DNA from: Planctomyces sp. SH-PL62
GTDB lineage: Bacteria > Planctomycetota > Planctomycetia > Planctomycetales > Planctomycetaceae
DNA: 64,000 nucleotides
Assembly (NCBI GenBank): GCA_945893045.1
Contig: CAMDEA010000021.1
Coordinates: 1-64,000, forward strand
Reading direction: 5' to 3'
The translations under genes and the position numbers were made by a program. Numbering within the stretch: the stretch's first letter is position 1; each line of letters begins with the position of its first letter. Shown one piece after another: positions 44,723-58,476 of the stretch. A model generated the notes under the pieces. That model saw only the letters and a program-made list of their open reading frames with translations. It was not told the origin of the DNA and made no database searches.

Positions 44723-46219
44723 CTACGTTTTCAATCGGACGGGAGAGAGTTCTTGCCGCAAGGTTTCACGCATGTGTTCGATGGGCGCGGGCTGGCCGGT
44801 GAAGAGTTCAAACTGCGCGGCGGCTTGGCGGATGAACATTTCCAGGCCGGAGATCGTGTGGGCCTCGCGCTGCTTGGCTTGTTTGAGCAACAGCGTGTTT
44901 TCGGGATTGTAGATCGTGTCGAAGACGAGCATCCCTTCGCGCAGCCAGTTGTCCGCGAAGGGGGAGTCGTCCACATTCGGGTGCATGCCGACCGGCGTGC
45001 AGTTGATGAGCACGTCGGCGTACTGCGCTCCGCGGTTTTCCCACAGGACATGCTGGCAGCCGAGTCGTTCCGCGAGTTCTTTGGCTCGCGCGTGCGTGCG
45101 GCTGGCGAGCATCAGGATGCCACCGTTCTTGGCCACGCCGGCTCCAATCGCCATCGCGACGCCGCCGGCTCCGAGCATCATCACTCGCTTTCCGGCCAGC
45201 ACGAAATGGTTGTCCGGCTCGGAGTCCAAGCCGATCGCCAGCGTTTGCAGCGCGGCGAGGTAATCGGTGTTCGTCGCGTGCCACTGACCGCCGGCGTCCT
45301 TCCACAGCGTGTTGGCCGCGCCGATGGATTGCACTGCCTCGTCGCTGAGGTCCGCTTTGCCGATCACGTCCTCCTTGTGCGGAATGGTGACGCTGTAACC
45401 CTGCACGTCGAGCCAATCGAAATCCCGCAGCGTCGCTTGCAGTTTGTCCTTCGGCACTCGGAACGGAACGTAGACGGCGTTCATTCCCAAATGCTGAAAC
45501 GCCGCGTTGTGAATCAGCGGGCTGTAGCTGTGAGCCAGCGGATCGCCGAGCACTCCGAAGACCTGCGTGTCGGCGTTGATCTGGTCGAAGCGGTAGATCT
45601 GCTTCATCTCATCAAACGACAACTGCCCCGGAGCCAATTCGCGATCCTTGTTAAACGTCGCATAGGTCAGCGGGCTGCCATACTTGCCGCAGAGGATACG
45701 GCTGGCCGTGCCGAACTCGCCCATGCAGAAGCCGGCGGTCGGCACGCTGCTGTGTTTGACCAGTTGCAGCATCCGCACCATGTCGCCGGGCGAATTCGCC
45801 ATCGTGGTCAGCTTGATGATGTCCGGGTCGAGCTTGGTCATCTTGGCGTGGATGTCGGCCAAGTCCTGCGGCGTCTCGCGGAAGTTGTGAAAGCTGATGA
45901 TCCGCTTCGTCTGGCCATAGCGGCGAATCTGCAAGGCGATGTCCATCTCCAGATCGACGTACTCAGCCCCCTGCACGATCGCCTGCCGGAGCAACGTCTG
46001 CCGCTGCTCTTCGGAATCTCGCCAGCGGCCTTTGTCTTCAGCCCGTCGAATCGTGATGACGATCGGCGTCGGCCGGTCTTTCAGCAGCCGTCCCAGATCG
46101 GGCAAGTGAGACAAATAGTCCAAGCGGTACTCGACCAACTCGGCCCCCTTCTGGGCGAGAGCTTGATGTTCCAGAGTGACCATCTTGTGGCGCGTGCGGC
46201 CGATACTGACGCAAATCAT
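44723..46219 (-). CDS. aroDE: Bifunctional 3-dehydroquinate dehydratase/shikimate dehydrogenase
   Basis: A 498-residue fusion that catalyses two consecutive steps of the shikimate pathway. Residues 1-215 are a type I dehydroquinase with the catalytic histidine in ISFHNF and the Schiff-base lysine in DIIKLTTMA. From about residue 220 the NADP-dependent shikimate dehydrogenase begins: FGVLGDPLAHSYSPLIHN, GYSVTIPHKE, the dinucleotide motif GAGGVAMAI and a terminal GLEMFIRQAAAQFELFTG. The AroD-AroE order matches the plant and chlamydial fusion proteins. It is followed by aroK. Confidence 0.96.
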   Translation of the reverse strand: MICVSIGRTRHKMVTLEHQALAQKGAELVEYRLDYLSHLPDLGRLLKDRPTPIVITIRRAEDKGRWRDSEEQRQTLLRQAIVQGAEYVDLEMDIALQIRRYGQTKRIISFHNFRETPQDLADIHAKMTKLDPDIIKLTTMANSPGDMVRMLQLVKHSSVPTAGFCMGEFGTASRILCGKYGSPLTYATFNKDRELAPGQLSFDEMKQIYRFDQINADTQVFGVLGDPLAHSYSPLIHNAAFQHLGMNAVYVPFRVPKDKLQATLRDFDWLDVQGYSVTIPHKEDVIGKADLSDEAVQSIGAANTLWKDAGGQWHATNTDYLAALQTLAIGLDSEPDNHFVLAGKRVMMLGAGGVAMAIGAGVAKNGGILMLASRTHARAKELAERLGCQHVLWENRGAQYADVLINCTPVGMHPNVDDSPFADNWLREGMLVFDTIYNPENTLLLKQAKQREAHTISGLEMFIRQAAAQFELFTGQPAPIEHMRETLRQELSPVRLKT

Positions 46220-50055: not shown

Positions 50056-51465
50056 ATGGCGATACCGCGATTCCTGACGCTTCTGATTCTCGGCGGAATA
50101 CTCACGCTGCTCTCCGGCTGTGGCGGCGAGCGACTGACTCCGGCGGCGCTGGCCGCGCGGAAGGCTTTGCAGTTTGAACGGCCGCAGAATGCCCTCGACA
50201 AACTGTCGGAAGGCGCGGGCGATCAATCCGTCGAAGGGCATTACTTGCGAGCCTGCGCGCTGGAACAACTGGAACGCCTCACGGCCGCGAAAGCCGAGGC
50301 GGATTTAGCCATTGCCGCCGCGCCGAAGAATCCCAAGTACAAAGGCTATGCGCTGCGGTTGAAGTTGTTTGACGCCGACGAGTCGGCCATCGAACCGCTG
50401 CTGCAATTGCACGACGAGAATCCCTCTTCGGCGGCGGTCTCGCTGTATTCCATCTTCGCCTTCCAGGCCAAGCACGTGAAGCAGCGATCCGAGGGCAAGC
50501 TGCGAGCCGCGCGCGTGCAGTTGGAAAAGGCCCAGACCAGTTTGAAGACCGCCTTGTCGCTCGCCGCCGAAATCCCCGAATGCCAGCGTGAACTGGTGGA
50601 GATGGCGATCTGGTTCGAGCAACCGGCGGATGCTCTGAAGCTGGTCGATGCGCTGCTGCGCGAAGAGCCAGACCGCGTGGAGTTGTTGCAGCAGCGCGTC
50701 CGCGTGCTGCTGTTGTCCAAGCAACCGGCCGAGACGATCTCGACGGCGGTGGCGTTGTACAAACGCAAGGAGCGCACGGAAGCCGCGGCGGTCGAATTCG
50801 CCAACGTGCTCAATCGGTTGCCTCCGTCGCCGGCGGTGATGGAGCAATACGATTCGCTCCGCACAACTTTCCCCGCGAACACGGCGATCCTGTTGCGGCA
50901 CTGCTGGTCGCTCGGCAAAGGGAGCCGCGTCGAGGAGGCTTGTCAGGAATTGGCGAAGTCCTTCGAGCAGCAAACTGAGCCGCGCCGCCGCCAGATTCTC
51001 GCTCAGTCCGCAGTGGCCATTCCCTTGGAAATGCACAACGCCGATATCGCGGCTGTGCAGTTGAAGAAATTCCGCAAAGAAATTGACAACGAGCAGATGC
51101 TGGCTTTCTTCGAGGGACAGTTGGCGGAGCAGCGTCACGACTATGCCCGGTCGGTCGAGAAAATGCAGGACGTCGTCAACGCCTATCGCACCGACAGCTC
51201 CGCCTCGTCCGAATTGGCCCGCGTGGCCTTGAACCGCATTCGCCAGATGTTGTCGGAGCAGAATCTCGCCGAACAAATCCGCAAAGCCGCCGAACTGACG
51301 CTGCGCCGCGCTGGACTCAACCGCTACGACGAAGCCAACGTCCGCGAAGAAGCCCGCTCACTGCTCAATGTGCTGGAAGCCGAAGGTGCCTCGGAGCGAA
51401 CACCACGCGAAGGCCCGGCAGTTCGCATCGACAGCAACGTGCCGACCACCGCCTCCCCAAAGTGA
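50056..51465 (+). CDS. TPR-like helical lipoprotein
   Basis: A 469-residue protein with a lipoprotein signal ending LLSGCGG at residue about 22. The rest is helical, with repeated TPR-like units such as HYLRACALEQLERLTAAKAEADLAIAAAP and PADALKLVDALLREEPDRVELL. TPR lipoproteins usually form scaffolds; the partner is unknown. It is the third gene of the DUF1559 cluster, 41 bp after the previous stop, and converges on the FkbH-type gene with only 15 bp between stops. Confidence 0.8.
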   Translation: MAIPRFLTLLILGGILTLLSGCGGERLTPAALAARKALQFERPQNALDKLSEGAGDQSVEGHYLRACALEQLERLTAAKAEADLAIAAAPKNPKYKGYALRLKLFDADESAIEPLLQLHDENPSSAAVSLYSIFAFQAKHVKQRSEGKLRAARVQLEKAQTSLKTALSLAAEIPECQRELVEMAIWFEQPADALKLVDALLREEPDRVELLQQRVRVLLLSKQPAETISTAVALYKRKERTEAAAVEFANVLNRLPPSPAVMEQYDSLRTTFPANTAILLRHCWSLGKGSRVEEACQELAKSFEQQTEPRRRQILAQSAVAIPLEMHNADIAAVQLKKFRKEIDNEQMLAFFEGQLAEQRHDYARSVEKMQDVVNAYRTDSSASSELARVALNRIRQMLSEQNLAEQIRKAAELTLRRAGLNRYDEANVREEARSLLNVLEAEGASERTPREGPAVRIDSNVPTTASPK

Positions 51466-51480: not shown

Positions 51481-54435
51481 TCACGACTTGGCGAGCGTCG
51501 CGAAGCGATTTGGCGGCACGCCTGGGAAGTTCTCATCATCCGGCCTGGCGAATGCAACGTCGTTCGGGCCGATCCAGGTCACATACGGTGGCAATGGGAA
51601 GCGTTGGCTCGCGTCGAGCGTGAAGCGGCCGCCGGGTTGCTCGGTCCAGCCGCTGCGTCGCAGGCACGTCAGGACGGGTTGGTTGCGTGGTCCGGCGACG
51701 AACGGTGCGATCAGCCAGCGCCCGCCGCGCGCGGTCGTGGCCTGAACCAGACCGTGCAGCACGGCCTCTTCAACCCCGCGGCCAAGCGCCCGGCAACTCA
51801 TCAGCAGCGTGTCGACTTCCACCTGGTCGGGTCGCGATTCGTCCACAATCAGGATGGCGACGCCAACCACACCGTAATCGCCAAACTTGTCGGACGCTTC
51901 GACGACATAGATCGTGTGGTGCCCGCCCAAGGCCTGGATTTCGGTGAGGTCACGGCGGCGAAGCGAGAGGTGGAATTGGCTGGTCTTTTGTGTCAGTTGA
52001 GCCACGCGCGGCAAATCGGCGGGGCCCGCCTCACGCATGCGCACGCGGATTTGCAGCGAGTGAAGATACGAATCCAGGTCAGCGGTTGATTGGCGCTCGT
52101 GTTGCCGCTGTTGTTCCTGCCGGAACATGACCGAGCGGAGCCGGTCTTCGTCGGTGACGCGTGGGGTGTCAAACCGCCACAGTTGTGACAACGTCTGGCA
52201 GTACAAGACGGGATCGGCGGGGAGTGGCAGGACGGTGACCTGCGGCGCGTGCTGGCCAACTTCGAGACGATTGGCCATGTCGTCATCGATGAACACGAAG
52301 CTGTCGAGGCCGAGTCCCAATTCGGCCGCCAGCTCGCGCAGGTTTTCGGATTTCGGCCGCCAATTGATGCGTGCGGCGGCGATATCTTCGCGACGGAGCA
52401 ACATGCCGGGATGTTCGTCCAGAACGCGGAAAACGTCTTCCTCGGCGTTGCGGCTGACGAGCACGAGGAGCACACCGCGTTGTTTGAGTTGCAGGATTTG
52501 CTGCTGGAAGAGTTGGAAGCTTCGACCCGCATGATCGGGTCCAACCTGGATTCCGTCGTGACCGTCCTCGGCCAGTACGCCGCCCCACAGGATTCCATCG
52601 GCATCGAGAGCCAGCACCTTGGCCGGAGGTATCCGGCGGCGGCGCACGAGCCGGGCGAGCGCGATGCCGAGTTCCTGAAAAACCTTCGGCGAGTACGGCG
52701 AGCGGGCGACGACTTCGAGGTCGGCTCGGCTGGCGGCGGCGGTGCCAATCTGTTCGACCACGGCCGCGAAATCCACGATTTCCACGCCGTCGATTTCGGA
52801 CAGTCGCTGACGCCACCGCGCCCGCAAGGTTTCGACGGCGGCTCGGTCGGCCGTGGTGAACTGCGAGACCAGCGGCGGCAGCGTGGCCACGACGAGCGTA
52901 GCCTTCGCGTCGCGGGCGAATCGCTCGATGGCATCCAGCAACATGTCCGCCGCGCCCGCGCCGTCCGCACTCAGGTTGTCCGGCAAGTCTTCCGGACGTG
53001 CCAACACGACGTTGAGCCCGGTCGTGTTCTGACGAAACAAACTGTCCGAGCCGAGCAATTCCTGCGGCACTTGGTTGTATCCCGCAAACTCGACGCGCAC
53101 CGCAACGCCGAACGCCGCACTCCACAGCTTGAGCGACGAGGCCACCGGTTCAGCGGTGAATGTCGCGGCGATGACGATCGGCAGCGGGTCGTGCGCGTCC
53201 GCGTCAGATGTGCTGGAAGCGTCGCGCAGGGCCAGTCCACGCGTCACCGTTTCGTGATCGAGCAACGGCAGCAACTCGGGGTCGGCGGGCAGTTCGATCG
53301 CGTTTTCCCGCCGTTCCGATCCGGCTGTGGCCGCCGCATCCGAAGAGTTGCGGGGGGCCGCTCGCCCGGACTGCACCACCTGCCGCAGATCGCACATCGA
53401 CCGCAAGCGAAAACTTTCGGCGGCCGAGAGCGTGATGCCAAACCGGTCATGCAACCCGGCGGCGATGCTGAGTTGAGCGAGCGAATCCCAAGCTGCACAG
53501 TCGGCCGTGGACAGCGTCGGCGTGATCTCTGCGAGCGGCCGATCCAACGCCTGCGCCACGACCTCGCGCAACATTTGCTCGTGCGTTCCGAGGTCCGCCG
53601 GTTCGACGTCGCGCCGCGGCACGTCGCCGCGATTCGACGGCTGATCGCTGGAGTCCCTGCCGCGCGCGTCACCGGACTCCCGCCGCCGCAGGAATCGAGC
53701 CGGATTGCCACCCCAAACCTCACCCGCGCCAATCGTCGTGAACGGTGTGACATAGCTCATCGGTTCCACGATCACATCGGCTCCGATCCGCACCCCCAGG
53801 TCGATCCGAGTTTCACCGCCGATGACCACTCGCGGGCCGATCACGACGGGGGCGGTGACATACGATTTCGTGCCGTCCAGATTCGCCGTGATACTGTGCG
53901 CCGTCACCGTGCTGCCGGCACCGAGAATGGTTCCGTCCCCAATTTCGGTGAGATCGGCGTCATACAGCCGGCCTAACAGCAGGGTGCGTAGGCCAATCTG
54001 AGTTCTCGTCGCCGTCGCCCATAGCACCAGATGCCGCGGCCCCTCCAAACACATGTACGACCGCGTCAGCGGCAAATGCCACACGATCCGCTCGCGAAGG
54101 TAGCGCATAATCATTAAACGAAAACGAACATTGTCACGGACTCGGGCGGAGGTCGTCATGCGGCGGTGTTTGCGAAAGCCGAACAAAATCGGTGACAGCC
54201 GCGTCTCGAGGGCGCTCGCGATCAAAAATAAATTCAGCCAACTGACATAAATCAACGGCGCAAACACGAGCCAGTGCTTCCACGTCCAAGTCTCGGACAA
54301 CCCCAACCCGTCAATGACAACTTGCATGAGGATGGCCAGCACGACCGCGGCCAACGTGGGGGACAGGCAGAACAACACCGCTCCCACGATCGAAAACATC
54401 AACGCTCGCATTCCGTAAAGAATTACTCCGCGCAT
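51481..54435 (-). CDS. Membrane-anchored LbH transferase-ACP-FkbH-GNAT multidomain protein
   Basis: A 984-residue protein (TTG 54459 would add eight). Residues about 10-70 contain two hydrophobic segments. Residues about 130-250 form a left-handed beta-helix (hexapeptide) acyltransferase (IGDGTILGAGSTVTAHSI, VIGPRVVIGG, GGNPARFL) like the terminal part of Pls-type synthetases. At about 290-360 an acyl carrier domain has WDSLAQLS with the phosphopantetheine serine. Residues about 420-750 are FkbH-like, with HAD motif LALDADGILWGGVLAEDG, LVSRNAEED and VFIDDD. A GNAT-like C-terminus follows. FkbH proteins load glyceryl units from 1,3-bisphosphoglycerate onto an ACP. No PKS or NRPS gene is nearby. 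Confidence 0.85.
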   Translation of the reverse strand: MRGVILYGMRALMFSIVGAVLFCLSPTLAAVVLAILMQVVIDGLGLSETWTWKHWLVFAPLIYVSWLNLFLIASALETRLSPILFGFRKHRRMTTSARVRDNVRFRLMIMRYLRERIVWHLPLTRSYMCLEGPRHLVLWATATRTQIGLRTLLLGRLYDADLTEIGDGTILGAGSTVTAHSITANLDGTKSYVTAPVVIGPRVVIGGETRIDLGVRIGADVIVEPMSYVTPFTTIGAGEVWGGNPARFLRRRESGDARGRDSSDQPSNRGDVPRRDVEPADLGTHEQMLREVVAQALDRPLAEITPTLSTADCAAWDSLAQLSIAAGLHDRFGITLSAAESFRLRSMCDLRQVVQSGRAAPRNSSDAAATAGSERRENAIELPADPELLPLLDHETVTRGLALRDASSTSDADAHDPLPIVIAATFTAEPVASSLKLWSAAFGVAVRVEFAGYNQVPQELLGSDSLFRQNTTGLNVVLARPEDLPDNLSADGAGAADMLLDAIERFARDAKATLVVATLPPLVSQFTTADRAAVETLRARWRQRLSEIDGVEIVDFAAVVEQIGTAAASRADLEVVARSPYSPKVFQELGIALARLVRRRRIPPAKVLALDADGILWGGVLAEDGHDGIQVGPDHAGRSFQLFQQQILQLKQRGVLLVLVSRNAEEDVFRVLDEHPGMLLRREDIAAARINWRPKSENLRELAAELGLGLDSFVFIDDDMANRLEVGQHAPQVTVLPLPADPVLYCQTLSQLWRFDTPRVTDEDRLRSVMFRQEQQRQHERQSTADLDSYLHSLQIRVRMREAGPADLPRVAQLTQKTSQFHLSLRRRDLTEIQALGGHHTIYVVEASDKFGDYGVVGVAILIVDESRPDQVEVDTLLMSCRALGRGVEEAVLHGLVQATTARGGRWLIAPFVAGPRNQPVLTCLRRSGWTEQPGGRFTLDASQRFPLPPYVTWIGPNDVAFARPDDENFPGVPPNRFATLAKS

Positions 54436-54519
54436 ACGACGTCCATTTCTTGATACCAACGGAGCGCGAAGATTCTGACGCAGTTGAGCTGAGATGAGTT
54501 CTCGTTCAGATCAGCGCTG

Positions 54520-57500
54520 TCAGGCCGCGTGTTGCGGAATGCTCCTGCCTCCGCGTTTCGGCAGGCAGCCGATGCCGATGATGACCAGTTGGCTGAACGC
54601 GAACAGCCCCAGGGCCAGCAGCACGCCTTCGGTGAAGCCGTAGCTGTGCAGGCCGACGCCGAGTTCATTCACGCCGAACCACGACCAGCCGGTGAAGATG
54701 TTGCCGGCGATGGCCAGCACGGCCATGCCGCGTCCGCTGACCATGCCGCCCCAGCGCGCGTGCAGGACCACGGCATTCCACAACACGATGATCAGCGCCC
54801 CGTTCTCTTTCGGATCCCAGCCCCAGAAGCGGCCCCAACTATCGTCGGCCCATAAGCCGCCCAGCACCGTCCCCACAAAGCTGAAGAAGATGCCGAAGCA
54901 CAGCGTCCCGTAAATCATTCGCGACAAGTTCTTCTCCAACTCGGGAGTCAGCGGTTCGGCGTCGCGATATTCCGACTGCATGTAGGCCCACGCGGTCGCG
55001 CCCACACCGAACATACCGCCGATGATGCCGAGCAATTTCACCGTCCCGGCCGAGATGCTGATTTCGGCCAGTGTCTCGATCATCTCGGCGATCGGGCTGG
55101 GAAGCTGATAGCAGACGACGGCGAGCAACGCCGACATCGCGAACGCGAACGGCAGCGGCTTGCGGAGGGCGACATACATCAGCCCCAGCATTCCCGACAG
55201 GAAGGTCATCGCATAGCCCATGTTGATCGTGGTGACATGCGTCGCCAGCCAGAACTGAGTGTCGAGCACCGCGACCAGCACTTTGAATGTGTCGCCATCG
55301 CCGCTCAGGAAGTGAGCGATCAACAGCGTTGCGAAACCAGCGCCGGACGCGACCACGTTGCCGATCCCGATCTTGTAGACCTTCTCCAGCACCAGCCCCA
55401 GCGCCACGATGCCCCAGCCGATGAACACCGCCGTCGTATACAAGTTCGTCACCGGCGGCCGGCCGGAAATGATGATGCGGGAAATCAAGGCGAGCGTGTG
55501 CAGACCGAACGTGAAGAGACAAATCCCAAACACCGTCCGGTTCAACGTGCGCGTCCAGCCAAGCATCGCCGCGAACGCCAGCAACAGCCCCAGGAAGTAG
55601 ATCATCGACGCCAGCAGGAACGGCTGAAACGAGTTGAAGGACCACTCGAAGCCGATGCGGCTCATCCCCACGCCATCGAACGATTCGCTCTTCAACGAAT
55701 CGCGATAACCAGCCACCGCGCCGTTGAAGCCCGACACGTTGCCGGATTCATAGTCGGTCAGAAGCGTTCGCCAGGCGGCCACGGCCGGAGCGGCTTTGCG
55801 AGCACCTCCCTTCGTCAGCGCGTCCTCGTCCTTCAAATCCATCTTCTCGACGTCGGGATAACGTCGCTTCAGCCAGTTTCGAGACTCGGTGAGCTGCGCG
55901 TTCTCGTCCATGGAAAGCCGCTGGTCTTCGTCCGCGAGGACTTCGCCGATCTGAGTCATCGCGAATTTGATGATCAGGCGATGATCCGGCTGATCGTCGA
56001 GCGGTTGCATCAGTTCGGCCAACGTGAGGAAGTCCCAGTAGTCGTTGGTGCCGCTGGCCGGCGGCACGACACGTGCGAGTTTGGTTTCGCGCAGCGCCGC
56101 TTCAAAGCCGACCGCTCGCTGAAGGCGTTCCATCGGCGCGCGAGCCTCGATCTCCGGCTGCTCGGCAAAGCGCGACAGCGTTTCGTACAAGCCGAACTTG
56201 CGCTCGAACTCGATCGCCTTGCGATCTTCGACGCTCATGTTGCGAGCACCCTTCTTGCGAGCTTCATCGGTCTTCTGACCAAGCTTCACCAGCCGCCGAT
56301 CACGGGGCATTTTGTCCTTCTCGTCCGGCTGCTCGACGATTTCCGCCATCGAGTACCGATAGCCTTTGCGCGGCTCCAGATTCAGCGCCTTGAGCACTTC
56401 CAGATTCTCGATGCGGATCACCTTGTGATGCTTGGCCTCATTCGGCCGAGCGAACAAATCCATCAACCAGCGAATCGCCGGCTCGGTGCGAGTCTTGGTC
56501 TTGCCGTCTTCCTGGTATTCAAGCTTGAACGTCTCGGTGCCGGAGATGATCCGCAACAAGTTGCGGGCATACGTGTCGAGCGGCTTCACCCGGCCATCCG
56601 CGACGATGGGCAAGTGCCCGACTGCCGCATAGTCAAAAGCCTTCTCTGGAGTCGCCGGTGTCTTCGTCTTGCTGACGACCCACAACGCCAGGAACGCAAC
56701 CGTCACGATGGGCACCCAGCGGGCCGCTCCATCGACGGTGGTTTGCTGGACAACTTTGATCTCGCGGGCGCGGCGATCCAGGAACCGCAGCAGCGTCACC
56801 GAAAACTGAAACAACATGCCGACCGCCACGATCATGCATGCCACATACGGAATCATCCAGCCGCTGTTCGTGACGACTTGCAGCGTCGAGTATTCCTTGG
56901 CACCCGCCTGCGTGTAGCCGCTCTGATAGAAGGTCTCGCCGGCATATCGCAGCGGATTGTTCATCCAGACGTGATGCTCGAAAACCGATGGCTCTCCGCC
57001 GGCATTCAGATGCGAGTAATCCGTCACACGAATGTCCGAGGAGTAATTCCGAGCGGTACTCGTGCCGACGTAATTCGTACCATCCACGTCAATCAGTTCA
57101 ATCGTGTAAGGCTTGTAGTCGCGGCGGAATCGCAGCGAGAGATCGTACTTCTTGCCATCAAACTCCACGGCCTCGGATCGGTCCTGCATCGCAAGCAGCA
57201 CGGCGGTCAGATAGGTGCCGATCTCTTCGCCGCTGCCACGCTTCGTCAGACGGACGATGGCACCCGGCATGTCCACCTTGGTGTCGGTATCGACGCCGGT
57301 CGAACCACCCACGGGGACCAACGCATTCGTCTTGCCGATGCCGTGCGTCGCCTCAATCTGGTGTTCTTCCGTCGGCGGCCGGACGCGCGCGTTGCCGTAA
57401 TACTTCAGCACCTCGATGTCGAACGGCAGCAGTTCATTCGTGATCTTGCCCTTACCGACGCTGCTTTTCAGTCGCGAGCCTTGTACCACGACATGCGTTT

Positions 57501-58476
57501 CGGAATCCGTACCGGCCGACTCGACAAACGCCAGTTCGCTCGACCGGTGATCGCTGGCGAAGTTTGATGTCTGCCCTTCCTCCAACGAAATCTGAGCCTC
57601 GACCGCCGTCAGGCCGACCAGCAGTTCGCTGAGCATCATCAGTCCGATGCCGCCATGCAGCAGCACGATGCCCGCTCGCTTCTTGAAGACCATCACGCAG
57701 CCGATCAGCATCACAACGCCGGCGAACGTCGCTTTCAACAATTGCCACAGGATGCGCATCGACGAATCGTCCAGCCGAGCCGCATCCCCTTTCATCCACA
57801 ACCCGGCGACGATCAGACCCAGTGCCACGCAGAGAATGTCTGCCGCCCAGAACTTCGTCTTGGCGAGCGCATCACCGGGACGGAACCGCGATAACTGGAT
57901 GGCACCATAGACCGATCCGCCCCACAGCGCCGTCAGGCCCAGCTTGAAGAACGACCACAAAGTCTCCCACTTGACCCAGCTTTTGCCTTGTAAGCCGTCC
58001 GCACTCGAACCGCTCACCACGACCAGCCACGTCGTCAGCATCCCCAATCCGATGACTCCGACGCCGGCCCACAACTGAGTTCCCTTCGCTTGGGCTTTGA
58101 ATCGGATGCCGTGAGCCGCCACCAGATTCAAAAACATCAACGTGCCAAGCAGCCGGCCGCCGGGAAATGGAATGACCATCCAGGCCGGCAAGTCCGGCTG
58201 ATGATCGAACACAAAATTCGGAAAGAACGCGGGCGGAAAAAACACTTGCAGATCAATCCACGCGATCTGACAGCGAAAGTATTCATCGACGACCTGCCAG
58301 ATGTCCTTATCGACTTGAGCCAGCGTTCCCGCCATCACCAGCACGACCGCCATCGCCAACAGCGAGACCGTCAGCTTCAACGAGGCCAACGGCCGTAAGA
58401 GTTTTGCAACCATCGGACCCACCGAGATGTCCGAGTCTGATCCGACACGTTCATTGAGGATGTCTGCTGTCGCCAT
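54520..58476 (-). CDS. Cytochrome c biogenesis CcsBA (ResB-ResC fusion)
   Basis: A 1318-residue membrane protein of system II cytochrome c maturation, which exports haem and attaches it to CxxCH motifs. The ResB/CcsB part begins near residue 30 (LASLKLTVSLLAMAVVLVMAGTLAQ) with further helices near 140-260 and a large periplasmic loop. The CcsA part occupies the C-terminal third with WGWDPKENGALI, the haem-handling WWD motif region. The central soluble stretch (about 650-960) is long and charged compared with other CcsBA proteins. ATG 58476 follows AGAGGAG. The large c-type cytochrome gene at 60814 is a likely client. Confidence 0.92.
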   Translation of the reverse strand: MATADILNERVGSDSDISVGPMVAKLLRPLASLKLTVSLLAMAVVLVMAGTLAQVDKDIWQVVDEYFRCQIAWIDLQVFFPPAFFPNFVFDHQPDLPAWMVIPFPGGRLLGTLMFLNLVAAHGIRFKAQAKGTQLWAGVGVIGLGMLTTWLVVVSGSSADGLQGKSWVKWETLWSFFKLGLTALWGGSVYGAIQLSRFRPGDALAKTKFWAADILCVALGLIVAGLWMKGDAARLDDSSMRILWQLLKATFAGVVMLIGCVMVFKKRAGIVLLHGGIGLMMLSELLVGLTAVEAQISLEEGQTSNFASDHRSSELAFVESAGTDSETHVVVQGSRLKSSVGKGKITNELLPFDIEVLKYYGNARVRPPTEEHQIEATHGIGKTNALVPVGGSTGVDTDTKVDMPGAIVRLTKRGSGEEIGTYLTAVLLAMQDRSEAVEFDGKKYDLSLRFRRDYKPYTIELIDVDGTNYVGTSTARNYSSDIRVTDYSHLNAGGEPSVFEHHVWMNNPLRYAGETFYQSGYTQAGAKEYSTLQVVTNSGWMIPYVACMIVAVGMLFQFSVTLLRFLDRRAREIKVVQQTTVDGAARWVPIVTVAFLALWVVSKTKTPATPEKAFDYAAVGHLPIVADGRVKPLDTYARNLLRIISGTETFKLEYQEDGKTKTRTEPAIRWLMDLFARPNEAKHHKVIRIENLEVLKALNLEPRKGYRYSMAEIVEQPDEKDKMPRDRRLVKLGQKTDEARKKGARNMSVEDRKAIEFERKFGLYETLSRFAEQPEIEARAPMERLQRAVGFEAALRETKLARVVPPASGTNDYWDFLTLAELMQPLDDQPDHRLIIKFAMTQIGEVLADEDQRLSMDENAQLTESRNWLKRRYPDVEKMDLKDEDALTKGGARKAAPAVAAWRTLLTDYESGNVSGFNGAVAGYRDSLKSESFDGVGMSRIGFEWSFNSFQPFLLASMIYFLGLLLAFAAMLGWTRTLNRTVFGICLFTFGLHTLALISRIIISGRPPVTNLYTTAVFIGWGIVALGLVLEKVYKIGIGNVVASGAGFATLLIAHFLSGDGDTFKVLVAVLDTQFWLATHVTTINMGYAMTFLSGMLGLMYVALRKPLPFAFAMSALLAVVCYQLPSPIAEMIETLAEISISAGTVKLLGIIGGMFGVGATAWAYMQSEYRDAEPLTPELEKNLSRMIYGTLCFGIFFSFVGTVLGGLWADDSWGRFWGWDPKENGALIIVLWNAVVLHARWGGMVSGRGMAVLAIAGNIFTGWSWFGVNELGVGLHSYGFTEGVLLALGLFAFSQLVIIGIGCLPKRGGRSIPQHAA

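What the first reader, a model, noticed from the sequence alone, without database searches (positions are those of the whole stretch)
51481..54435. Stand-alone membrane protein combining LbH transferase, acyl carrier, FkbH-like HAD and GNAT-like domains
Seen: one reading frame carries two N-terminal hydrophobic segments, a hexapeptide beta-helix region, an ACP-like WDSLAQLS, the HAD/FkbH landmarks LALDADGILWGGVLAEDG, LVSRNAEED and VFIDDD, and a further C-terminal domain. Known: FkbH enzymes move a glyceryl unit from 1,3-bisphosphoglycerate to an ACP, normally inside polyketide clusters; the beta-helix resembles the terminal domain of Pls-type synthetases. Inferred: this protein could load a C3 unit onto its own ACP and hand it to a membrane acceptor, a self-contained pathway for a modified lipid or polymer. 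No PKS, NRPS or adenylation gene is adjacent. The HAD loop is unusual (DADGI where DLDNT is typical).
Basis: partly seen in the sequence, partly recalled or inferred. Interest (0 to 1): 0.75.

Follow-up and report, generated by a model that had tools for sequence, protein, structure and literature searches.

The report
Self-loading membrane glyceryl transferase candidate
One bacterial membrane protein appears to take a three-carbon unit from sugar breakdown, load it onto its own carrier arm and pass it to something at the membrane, a chemistry best known from enzymes that build antibiotics.

Summary
A 992-codon minus-strand gene (51481-54459; likely ATG at 54435) encodes a membrane hairpin, a left-handed beta-helix (LbH) acyltransferase domain, an acyl carrier domain, and a complete FkbH unit (SGNH-like N-domain, HAD, GNAT-like). 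The GNAT-like part belongs to FkbH, and the DADGI loop is ordinary for this family. Of 98 homologues found, 85 keep all seven residues checked: LbH His, ACP Ser, four HAD residues, FkbH Cys. Carriers lie in planctomycetes, verrucomicrobia and cyanobacteria. Of 19 family loci, 2 have a PKS ketosynthase in the fetched flanks.

The membrane-LbH part resembles the unit that occurs three times in the membrane domain of Pls/PosA poly-amino-acid synthetases. It also exists as a free membrane-LbH-ACP protein, in two loci beside E1/E2 dehydrogenase genes. A different LbH is fused to FkbH-ACP among glycosyltransferase genes.

Best reading (0.5): a membrane-anchored, probably trimeric, glyceryl transferase that loads itself from 1,3-bisphosphoglycerate; LbH hands the C3 unit, perhaps decorated, to a lipid or glycan. 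Loading is well supported by sequence; transfer and acceptor are inferred. New variant of a known kind.

The parts
51481..54435 (-). whole gene from the likely ATG start (open frame from TTG at 54459)
   Evidence: residue numbers in this report count from the TTG at 54459
54181..54444 (-). N-terminal helical hairpin, probably in the membrane (residues 6-93); basic residues before and after it suggest that the rest is cytoplasmic
   Evidence: hydropathy, AlphaFold2 helices 6-51 and 60-93; orientation read from the sequence
53674..53982 (-). left-handed beta-helix acyltransferase domain (residues 160-262)
53896..53898 (-). H188, the only fully conserved His of the beta-helix region, candidate catalytic base
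   Evidence: 74 of 74 aligned sequences; 28 of 28 stand-alone LbH-ACP proteins
53359..53601 (-). acyl carrier domain (residues 287-367)
   Evidence: PF00550 19.2 bits; four-helix fold
53482..53484 (-). S326, predicted phosphopantetheine attachment serine (WDSL)
   Evidence: 74 of 74
52633..53280 (-). FkbH N-terminal (SGNH-like) domain (residues 394-609)
52159..52623 (-). HAD core of FkbH (residues 613-767) with D619, D621, S669, K703, D725, D726
   Evidence: TIGR01686 and TIGR01681; all six the same in 74 of 74
51610..52053 (-). GNAT-like C-terminal part of FkbH (residues 803-950)
51793..51795 (-). C889 of the SCRxLGRG motif, candidate glyceryl-accepting cysteine
   Evidence: 74 of 74 aligned sequences; 26 of 26 other FkbH proteins

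Best explanation
A membrane-anchored glyceryl transferase that loads itself. Step 1 (strongly inferred from family chemistry): the FkbH unit takes D-glycerate from 1,3-bisphosphoglycerate, removes its phosphate in the HAD site, carries it on C889 and places it on the phosphopantetheine of its own ACP (S326). Step 2 (inferred from the low-confidence, probably flexible linkers of the model): the ACP swings to the membrane-bound beta-helix. Step 3 (inferred): the beta-helix, working as a homotrimer that mimics the three-in-one membrane domain of Pls/PosA, uses H188 to pass the glyceryl group to a hydroxyl or amine of a lipid or lipid-linked glycan at the cytoplasmic face. In some relatives the glyceryl unit is probably first acylated, methylated or sulfated by neighbouring enzymes and the product exported. 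Architecture and residue conservation are shown; activity, acceptor, trimer and product are not.
For: FkbH well over its cut-off with the HAD residues and C889 unvarying; ACP serine and LbH His kept with the whole set in 85 of 98 homologues. The membrane-LbH unit aligns with Pls-type repeats 1, 2 and 3 (97.9, 69.8 and 99.4% probability; repeat 2 across the helical hairpin), and PosA's membrane domain is modelled as six helices under three packed beta-helices (PMC10522769, passages). The same TM-LbH-ACP exists alone (27 proteins, P0100-P0126, besides L027's own), in L027 and L029 beside fused E1 and E2 dehydrogenase genes, so the loader may be exchangeable. Another LbH type is fused to FkbH and an ACP-like end in L036, L039 and P0095, in L039 amid glycosyltransferases. 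A PPTase-family gene is in the genome. 2 of 19 family loci have a KS in the fetched flanks; L002's genome shows no KS frame above 446 aa.
Against: No substrate, acceptor or product is known. H188 could serve acylation of the glyceryl unit rather than its transfer. The own genome has two type I PKSs elsewhere, two relatives sit beside a PKS, and most carrier genomes sampled have a PS-DH PKS (15 of 21), so delivery to a PKS is not excluded. Homotrimerisation was not modelled. Pls repeat profiles were built from only two proteins, and in one of these (P0098) Glu aligns with H188. The ACP match is just under Pfam's cut-off.
Confidence: 0.5

Rival explanations
1. Glyceryl-ACP supplier for a PKS or fatty-acid system encoded elsewhere: the FkbH-ACP part makes glyceryl-ACP as a starter, extender or terminator, and the membrane beta-helix only anchors or trims it.
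For: L018 and L038 lie beside PKS genes; a PS-DH PKS occurs in 15 of 21 carrier genomes against 66 of 294 in the phylum sample (the carriers span other phyla and two carry only the stand-alone LbH-ACP, so the baseline is imperfect); the own genome holds a KS-AT-DH-ER-KR-ACP-TE and an A-ACP-KS-AT-MT-TE type gene.
Against: 6 of 21 carrier genomes have no PS-DH match; of those six, L002, L004 and L012 show no KS frame above 732 aa (G296 is fragmented, and these are draft bins); 17 of 19 family loci have no KS in their fetched flanks. An anchor alone does not explain the unvarying H188.
Confidence: 0.2
2. The glyceryl-ACP is itself acylated: FkbH makes glyceryl-ACP, and an acyl group from CoA or another ACP is put on its hydroxyl by LbH or by the HHxxxDG acyltransferase found near some relatives, giving an acyl-glycerate that is released or exported.
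For: HHxxxDG condensation-like genes beside L002 and L004 (PF00668 27.8 and 22.2 bits, under the cut-off of 30.6) and a 27%-identical one in the own genome; strong matches in 4 of 21 carrier genomes plus the own one, against 7 of 294 in the phylum sample including the own one; MMPL-type genes beside L002 and L018. Vioprolide: an ester-bond-forming condensation domain joins a fatty acid to FkbH-loaded glycerate (PMC8949500, passages).
Against: All four strong matches are in planctomycete bins; no match was found in L029's genome and only one weak hit (L017) among the other carriers. In G121, G205 and G291 it lies, without FkbH nearby, within about 8 kb of a PKS or next to an MMPL gene.
Confidence: 0.18
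3. The beta-helix is only a trimerising membrane scaffold; a separate enzyme takes the glyceryl unit off the ACP.
For: Some LbH proteins are structural (general knowledge); in the two Pls-like proteins looked at, repeats 1 and 2 lack a His aligned with H188.
Against: H188 is the same in 74 of 74 and 28 of 28 sequences, with a strongly kept GExWGGNPA turn; that is not expected of a mere scaffold.
Confidence: 0.1

Closest known systems
FkbH / OzmB-type glyceryl transferase-phosphatase (TIGR01686)
   Same: Same N-domain, HAD and GNAT-like parts, same HAD residues and SCR cysteine.
   Different: Best known as a free protein or a PKS/NRPS domain; here fused to a membrane LbH and its own ACP and encoded outside a PKS cluster.
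Pls/PosA poly-amino-acid synthetases (epsilon-polylysine, delta-polyornithine; TIGR02353)
   Same: Carrier domain joined to membrane helices with beta-helices of a related kind (PMC10522769 passages).
   Different: One unit instead of three, carrier after instead of before it, FkbH instead of an adenylation domain; far under the TIGR02353 cut-off (31.9 of 423.1 bits).
LbH O/N-acyltransferases (maltose O-acetyltransferase, CysE, VioB)
   Same: Fold, hexapeptide repeats, one conserved His.
   Different: Those are soluble and use CoA thioesters (general knowledge); here the donor is likely the tethered ACP and the domain follows a membrane hairpin.
FkbH modules of suomilide, vioprolide and tetronate pathways
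   Same: Glycerate loaded onto a carrier, then proposed to be methylated and sulfonated (suomilide), esterified to a fatty acid (vioprolide) or used to end a chain (tetromadurin).
   Different: Those are NRPS/PKS assembly lines; 17 of the 19 family loci here show no KS nearby.

Membership tests
FkbH (TIGR01686) | Full-length HMM match over the curated cut-off | tested here: met
   272.7 bits against 146.65, model positions 3-319 of 323
FkbH (TIGR01686) | HAD residues D, D, S, K, DD | tested here: met
   the same in 74 of 74; the same in 26 other FkbH proteins save one Thr for the Ser
FkbH (TIGR01686) | Conserved cysteine of the SCR motif | tested here: met
   C889 in 74 of 74 and 26 of 26; that this is the glyceryl-carrying Cys is inference
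FkbH (TIGR01686) | Glyceryl transfer from 1,3-bisphosphoglycerate to an ACP | not testable with these tools
   needs a mass-spectrometric loading assay
Acyl carrier protein (PF00550) | Curated HMM score | tested here: not met
   19.2 bits against 20.8 in this protein; several homologues are listed with PF00550
Acyl carrier protein (PF00550) | DSL serine on a four-helix fold | tested here: met
   S326 in 74 of 74; helices 287-305, 326-340, 346-350, 355-367
LbH acyltransferase | Hexapeptide beta-helix with a conserved His | tested here: met
gamma-carbonic anhydrase | Three metal-binding His on the beta-helix | tested here: not met
   H188 is the only column of residues 120-264 with His in all 74; the next has 21
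Pls/PosA synthetase (TIGR02353) | Adenylation domain and three membrane-LbH units | tested here: not met
   no adenylation match and a single unit; 31.9 of 423.1 bits
Pls/PosA synthetase (TIGR02353) | Homology of the membrane-LbH unit | tested here: met
   hhalign 97.9, 69.8 and 99.4% against the three repeats of P0097/P0098, two-sequence templates

The most novel reading that the evidence does not exclude
TM-LbH-ACP is a general membrane acyl-transfer platform of the Pls kind with exchangeable loaders: adenylation domains load amino acids in Pls/PosA, FkbH loads the C3 glyceryl unit here, and E1/E2 dehydrogenase-like proteins load a C2 unit in L027 and L029. As a homotrimer with three tethered carriers it could even act repeatedly and build a short glycerate polyester or a glycerate-decorated membrane lipid, powered by the acyl phosphate of 1,3-bisphosphoglycerate with no ATP-using adenylation step.
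Probability: 0.15. Interest if true: 0.85.

Novelty: new variant of a known kind. Interest (0 to 1): 0.6.

Why it matters
If right, a glycolytic intermediate feeds membrane or surface chemistry through a single protein, with the acyl phosphate of 1,3-bisphosphoglycerate paying for transfer. It would show that the Pls membrane domain is one case of a broader carrier-fed transferase whose loading enzyme can be swapped, and would give planctomycetes, verrucomicrobia and cyanobacteria a predicted glycerate-bearing lipid or glycan that can be looked for directly by mass spectrometry.

Tried and rejected
Considered and rejected: gamma-carbonic anhydrase (one fully conserved His only); a broken HAD site (six residues unvarying in 74 of 74); loss of a catalytic Cys before SRN, position 668 (Cys in only 12 of 26 other FkbH proteins, so not the conserved one); membership in Pls/PosA (no adenylation domain, score far under cut-off); an obligate PKS partner.

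Led nowhere: promoter and terminator scan (one promoter-like site inside the gene, one terminator-like site, neither informative). Paper searches for FkbH with Planctomycetes, FkbH-like with hexapeptide and FkbH with O-antigen gave no paper; four of five terms on O-antigen and glyceric acid gave none; 'HAD-IIIC family phosphatase' gave one paper, not opened. All 35 papers with FkbH were seen as a listing, others as listings. Passages were read in PMC5318452, PMC7489565, PMC7099621, PMC8949500 and PMC8609519 and in PMC10522769 on PosA; one whole section of PMC7099621. The primary papers on OzmB and on NapB/NapD were not held or not read; what is said of them is recalled or second-hand. The TM-LbH-ACP stand-alone model has moderate confidence (pLDDT 73.2) and was not searched. 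PDB fold search of the 992-residue model covers LbH, HAD and GNAT but barely tests the helical hairpin and the ACP; VIA-align rows mostly span residues 126-265.

Limits: 25 of the 98 homologues (partial, fused or distant) were left out of A2. The genome scan kept the best 80 of 111 relatives. Several loci end within a few kb (L015 and L017 are cut inside the gene), so absence of neighbours there is weak. Two of 27 FkbH loci (L035, L043) dropped out of the comparison. Only selected neighbours were scanned with Pfam; others are named by BLAST clustering. The phylum search scored at most two candidates a genome; one search found no locus among L092-L120 with both halves, but these loci are short.

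Full report
WHAT IS THERE. It encodes 992 (984 from the ATG) residues. The gene starts about 60-85 bases after the stop of a ResB/CcsA-like cytochrome c assembly gene on the same strand (54520-58476) and converges with a gene without a Pfam match at E 1e-5 (50056-51465). A KS search of the own genome finds none on this contig. The contig is C21 of a 7.83 Mb, 251-contig assembly (89% complete), and extends to 69475.

CATALYTIC RESIDUES. Over 74 aligned sequences (query plus 73 of the 98 homologues) H188 (LbH), S326 (ACP), D619, D621, S669, K703, D725, D726 (HAD) and S888-C889-R890 (FkbH end) never vary. Checked by pairwise alignment, 85 of all 98 homologues keep seven of these at once; most of the other 13 are fragments or lack one half. 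In 26 other FkbH proteins C889 is present in 26, whereas the residue before SRN is Cys in only 12. So nothing suggests a dead or altered FkbH, and the 'GNAT-like further domain' is the normal end of FkbH.

FAMILY AND SPREAD. The protein search gave 98 homologues, the best at 71% identity over 95% of the query. In named genomes the family occurs in planctomycetes, verrucomicrobia, cyanobacteria (L007-L011, L013, L019, L038) and single bins of other phyla. In 294 sampled genomes of the phylum only the own one holds a full-length match; the fetched loci of the other genomes hold an FkbH or an LbH match but never both (short loci). So the gene is patchy. A FastTree tree puts the window with P0001 and P0002, next to the clade of L002, and the cyanobacterial members together.

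SURROUNDINGS. Of 19 family loci (L002-L019, L038; L015 and L017 are cut by the contig end) two (L018, L038) have a ketosynthase in the fetched flanks and none has an adenylation domain detectable with the own genome's C108 domain as query (many contigs are short). In seven cyanobacteria (Scytonema, Nostoc, Anabaena, Tolypothrix, Calothrix) the gene lies downstream of a TPR gene, with other frames between in L008, L010 and L011, and in five of them ruvB lies further upstream on the same strand (Pfam on the L007 copies only); among the neighbours examined no biosynthetic cluster was seen, though L009 and L011 share a gene behind it that in L009 is a cytochrome P450. L018 and L038 share a sulfotransferase gene (Pfam on L018's); L038 adds an O-methyltransferase; L018 an MMPL-like protein by BLAST. 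L002 has an acyltransferase-3 gene, an HHxxxDG condensation-like acyltransferase and an MMPL gene, and L004 the HHxxxDG one (PF00668 scores are under its cut-off). A 27%-identical homologue is in the own genome on another contig. Strong matches to it occur in 4 of 21 carrier genomes (L002, L003, L004, L027; one weak in L017), all four planctomycete bins, against 7 of 294 sampled phylum genomes including the own one; within the window's own family the sample has 4 of 17, own included. In three relatives without FkbH nearby it lies within about 8 kb of a PKS (G121, G205) or next to an MMPL gene (G291); in a fourth, G257, neither was seen. This is suggestive of a lipid route, not proof.

PKS DEPENDENCE. 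A PS-DH PKS match occurs in 15 of 21 carrier genomes (19 of the family, two with the stand-alone form), against 66 of 294 in the phylum; six carriers (L002, L004, L008, L010, L011, L012) have none. The three cyanobacteria among them have other PKS-size KS frames, but L002, L004 and L012 have no KS frame above 732 aa (G296 is fragmented). The own genome has two PKS genes on other contigs. So a PKS does not seem to be required, though it may be used by some.

THE MEMBRANE-LbH-ACP CORE. A search with the 345-residue protein of L027 gave 32 proteins: its own record, 27 others (P0100-P0126; most 344-377 aa, three shorter) and four weak ones. The 28 with L027's own record all have the H188 and S326 equivalents. 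In L027 and L029 the gene follows a fused E1 and an E2-type 2-oxoacid dehydrogenase gene (in L027 with a lipoyl domain; L029's E2 by BLAST). From memory, such E1/E2 pairs (NapB/NapD) load a glycolyl C2 unit onto a carrier in naphthyridinomycin-type pathways; this was not read here. Against three repeats of two Pls-like proteins the membrane-LbH unit scores 97.9, 69.8 and 99.4% in hhalign, repeat 2 across the helices. The PosA paper models its membrane domain as six helices under three packed beta-helices (PMC10522769, passages). LbH acyltransferases usually work as trimers (general knowledge), so the single unit here probably trimerises. In P0097 only repeat 3 aligns a His with H188; in P0098 it is Glu.

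FkbH OUTSIDE POLYKETIDES. L036, L039 and P0095 carry an LbH (CysE-like by eye), FkbH and a C-terminal ACP (by eye, WDSLGHL) in one chain; L039 lies among glycosyltransferases and an acyltransferase-3/SGNH gene. L044 fuses an aminoglycoside-acetyltransferase-like domain to FkbH. An FkbH-domain gene, cj1302, lies in the flagellar glycosylation locus of Campylobacter jejuni (PMC7099621, section read). FkbH-loaded glycerate is proposed to be methylated and sulfonated in suomilide (PMC8609519, passage) and is described as esterified to a fatty acid in vioprolide (PMC8949500, passage), which fits the sulfotransferase, methyltransferase and HHxxxDG neighbours seen here.

MECHANISM. The simplest account is a self-loading, membrane-anchored glyceryl transferase (0.5). 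Loading from 1,3-bisphosphoglycerate is what FkbH does elsewhere and all residues checked are kept; the tethered ACP and flexible linkers suit a swinging arm; two LbH types in different domain orders fused to FkbH and ACP argue that LbH acts on the glyceryl thioester. Whether LbH passes glyceryl on, acylates it, or both, and what receives it, is open.

NOVELTY. Each domain is known, and FkbH next to carrier domains in one chain is known. The union with a Pls-type membrane unit, the single-unit form of that membrane domain, and the exchange of loaders were not found in the paper searches named under Tried and rejected; the library holds only openly licensed papers. I file it as a new variant of a known kind.

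Noticed in passing
L027:6403-10888; L029:1-3985: Stand-alone TM-LbH-ACP protein directly after fused E1 and E2-type dehydrogenase genes, suggesting an alternative C2 loader.
   Followed up: partly
L039:7646-10438; L036:9284-12145; P0095: CysE-like LbH, FkbH and ACP-like end fused in one chain (L036 and L039 in Rhodobacterales), in L039 among glycosyltransferase genes.
   Followed up: partly
L044:6483-8948: Aminoglycoside-acetyltransferase-like domain fused to FkbH.
   Followed up: no
P0072; P0075: TM-LbH-ACP-FkbH proteins extended by MaoC-type and SDR domains (P0072) or a methyltransferase (P0075), by the precomputed Pfam list.
   Followed up: no
L122:4681-12171 (G000 C62); L121:3204-10556 (G000 C108): Two type I PKS genes elsewhere in the own genome, one highly reducing with a thioesterase, one with an adenylation domain and a methyltransferase.
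   Followed up: partly
L126:9431-10864 (G000 C112); L002:4995-6386; L004:3890-5350; L129:8878-12545: HHxxxDG condensation-like acyltransferase of planctomycetes, next to an MMPL gene in L002 and L129 and within about 8 kb of PKS genes in G121 and G205.
   Followed up: partly
window 44723-46219: Long frame that reads as a fused 3-dehydroquinase/shikimate dehydrogenase (by eye, no HMM run).
   Followed up: no
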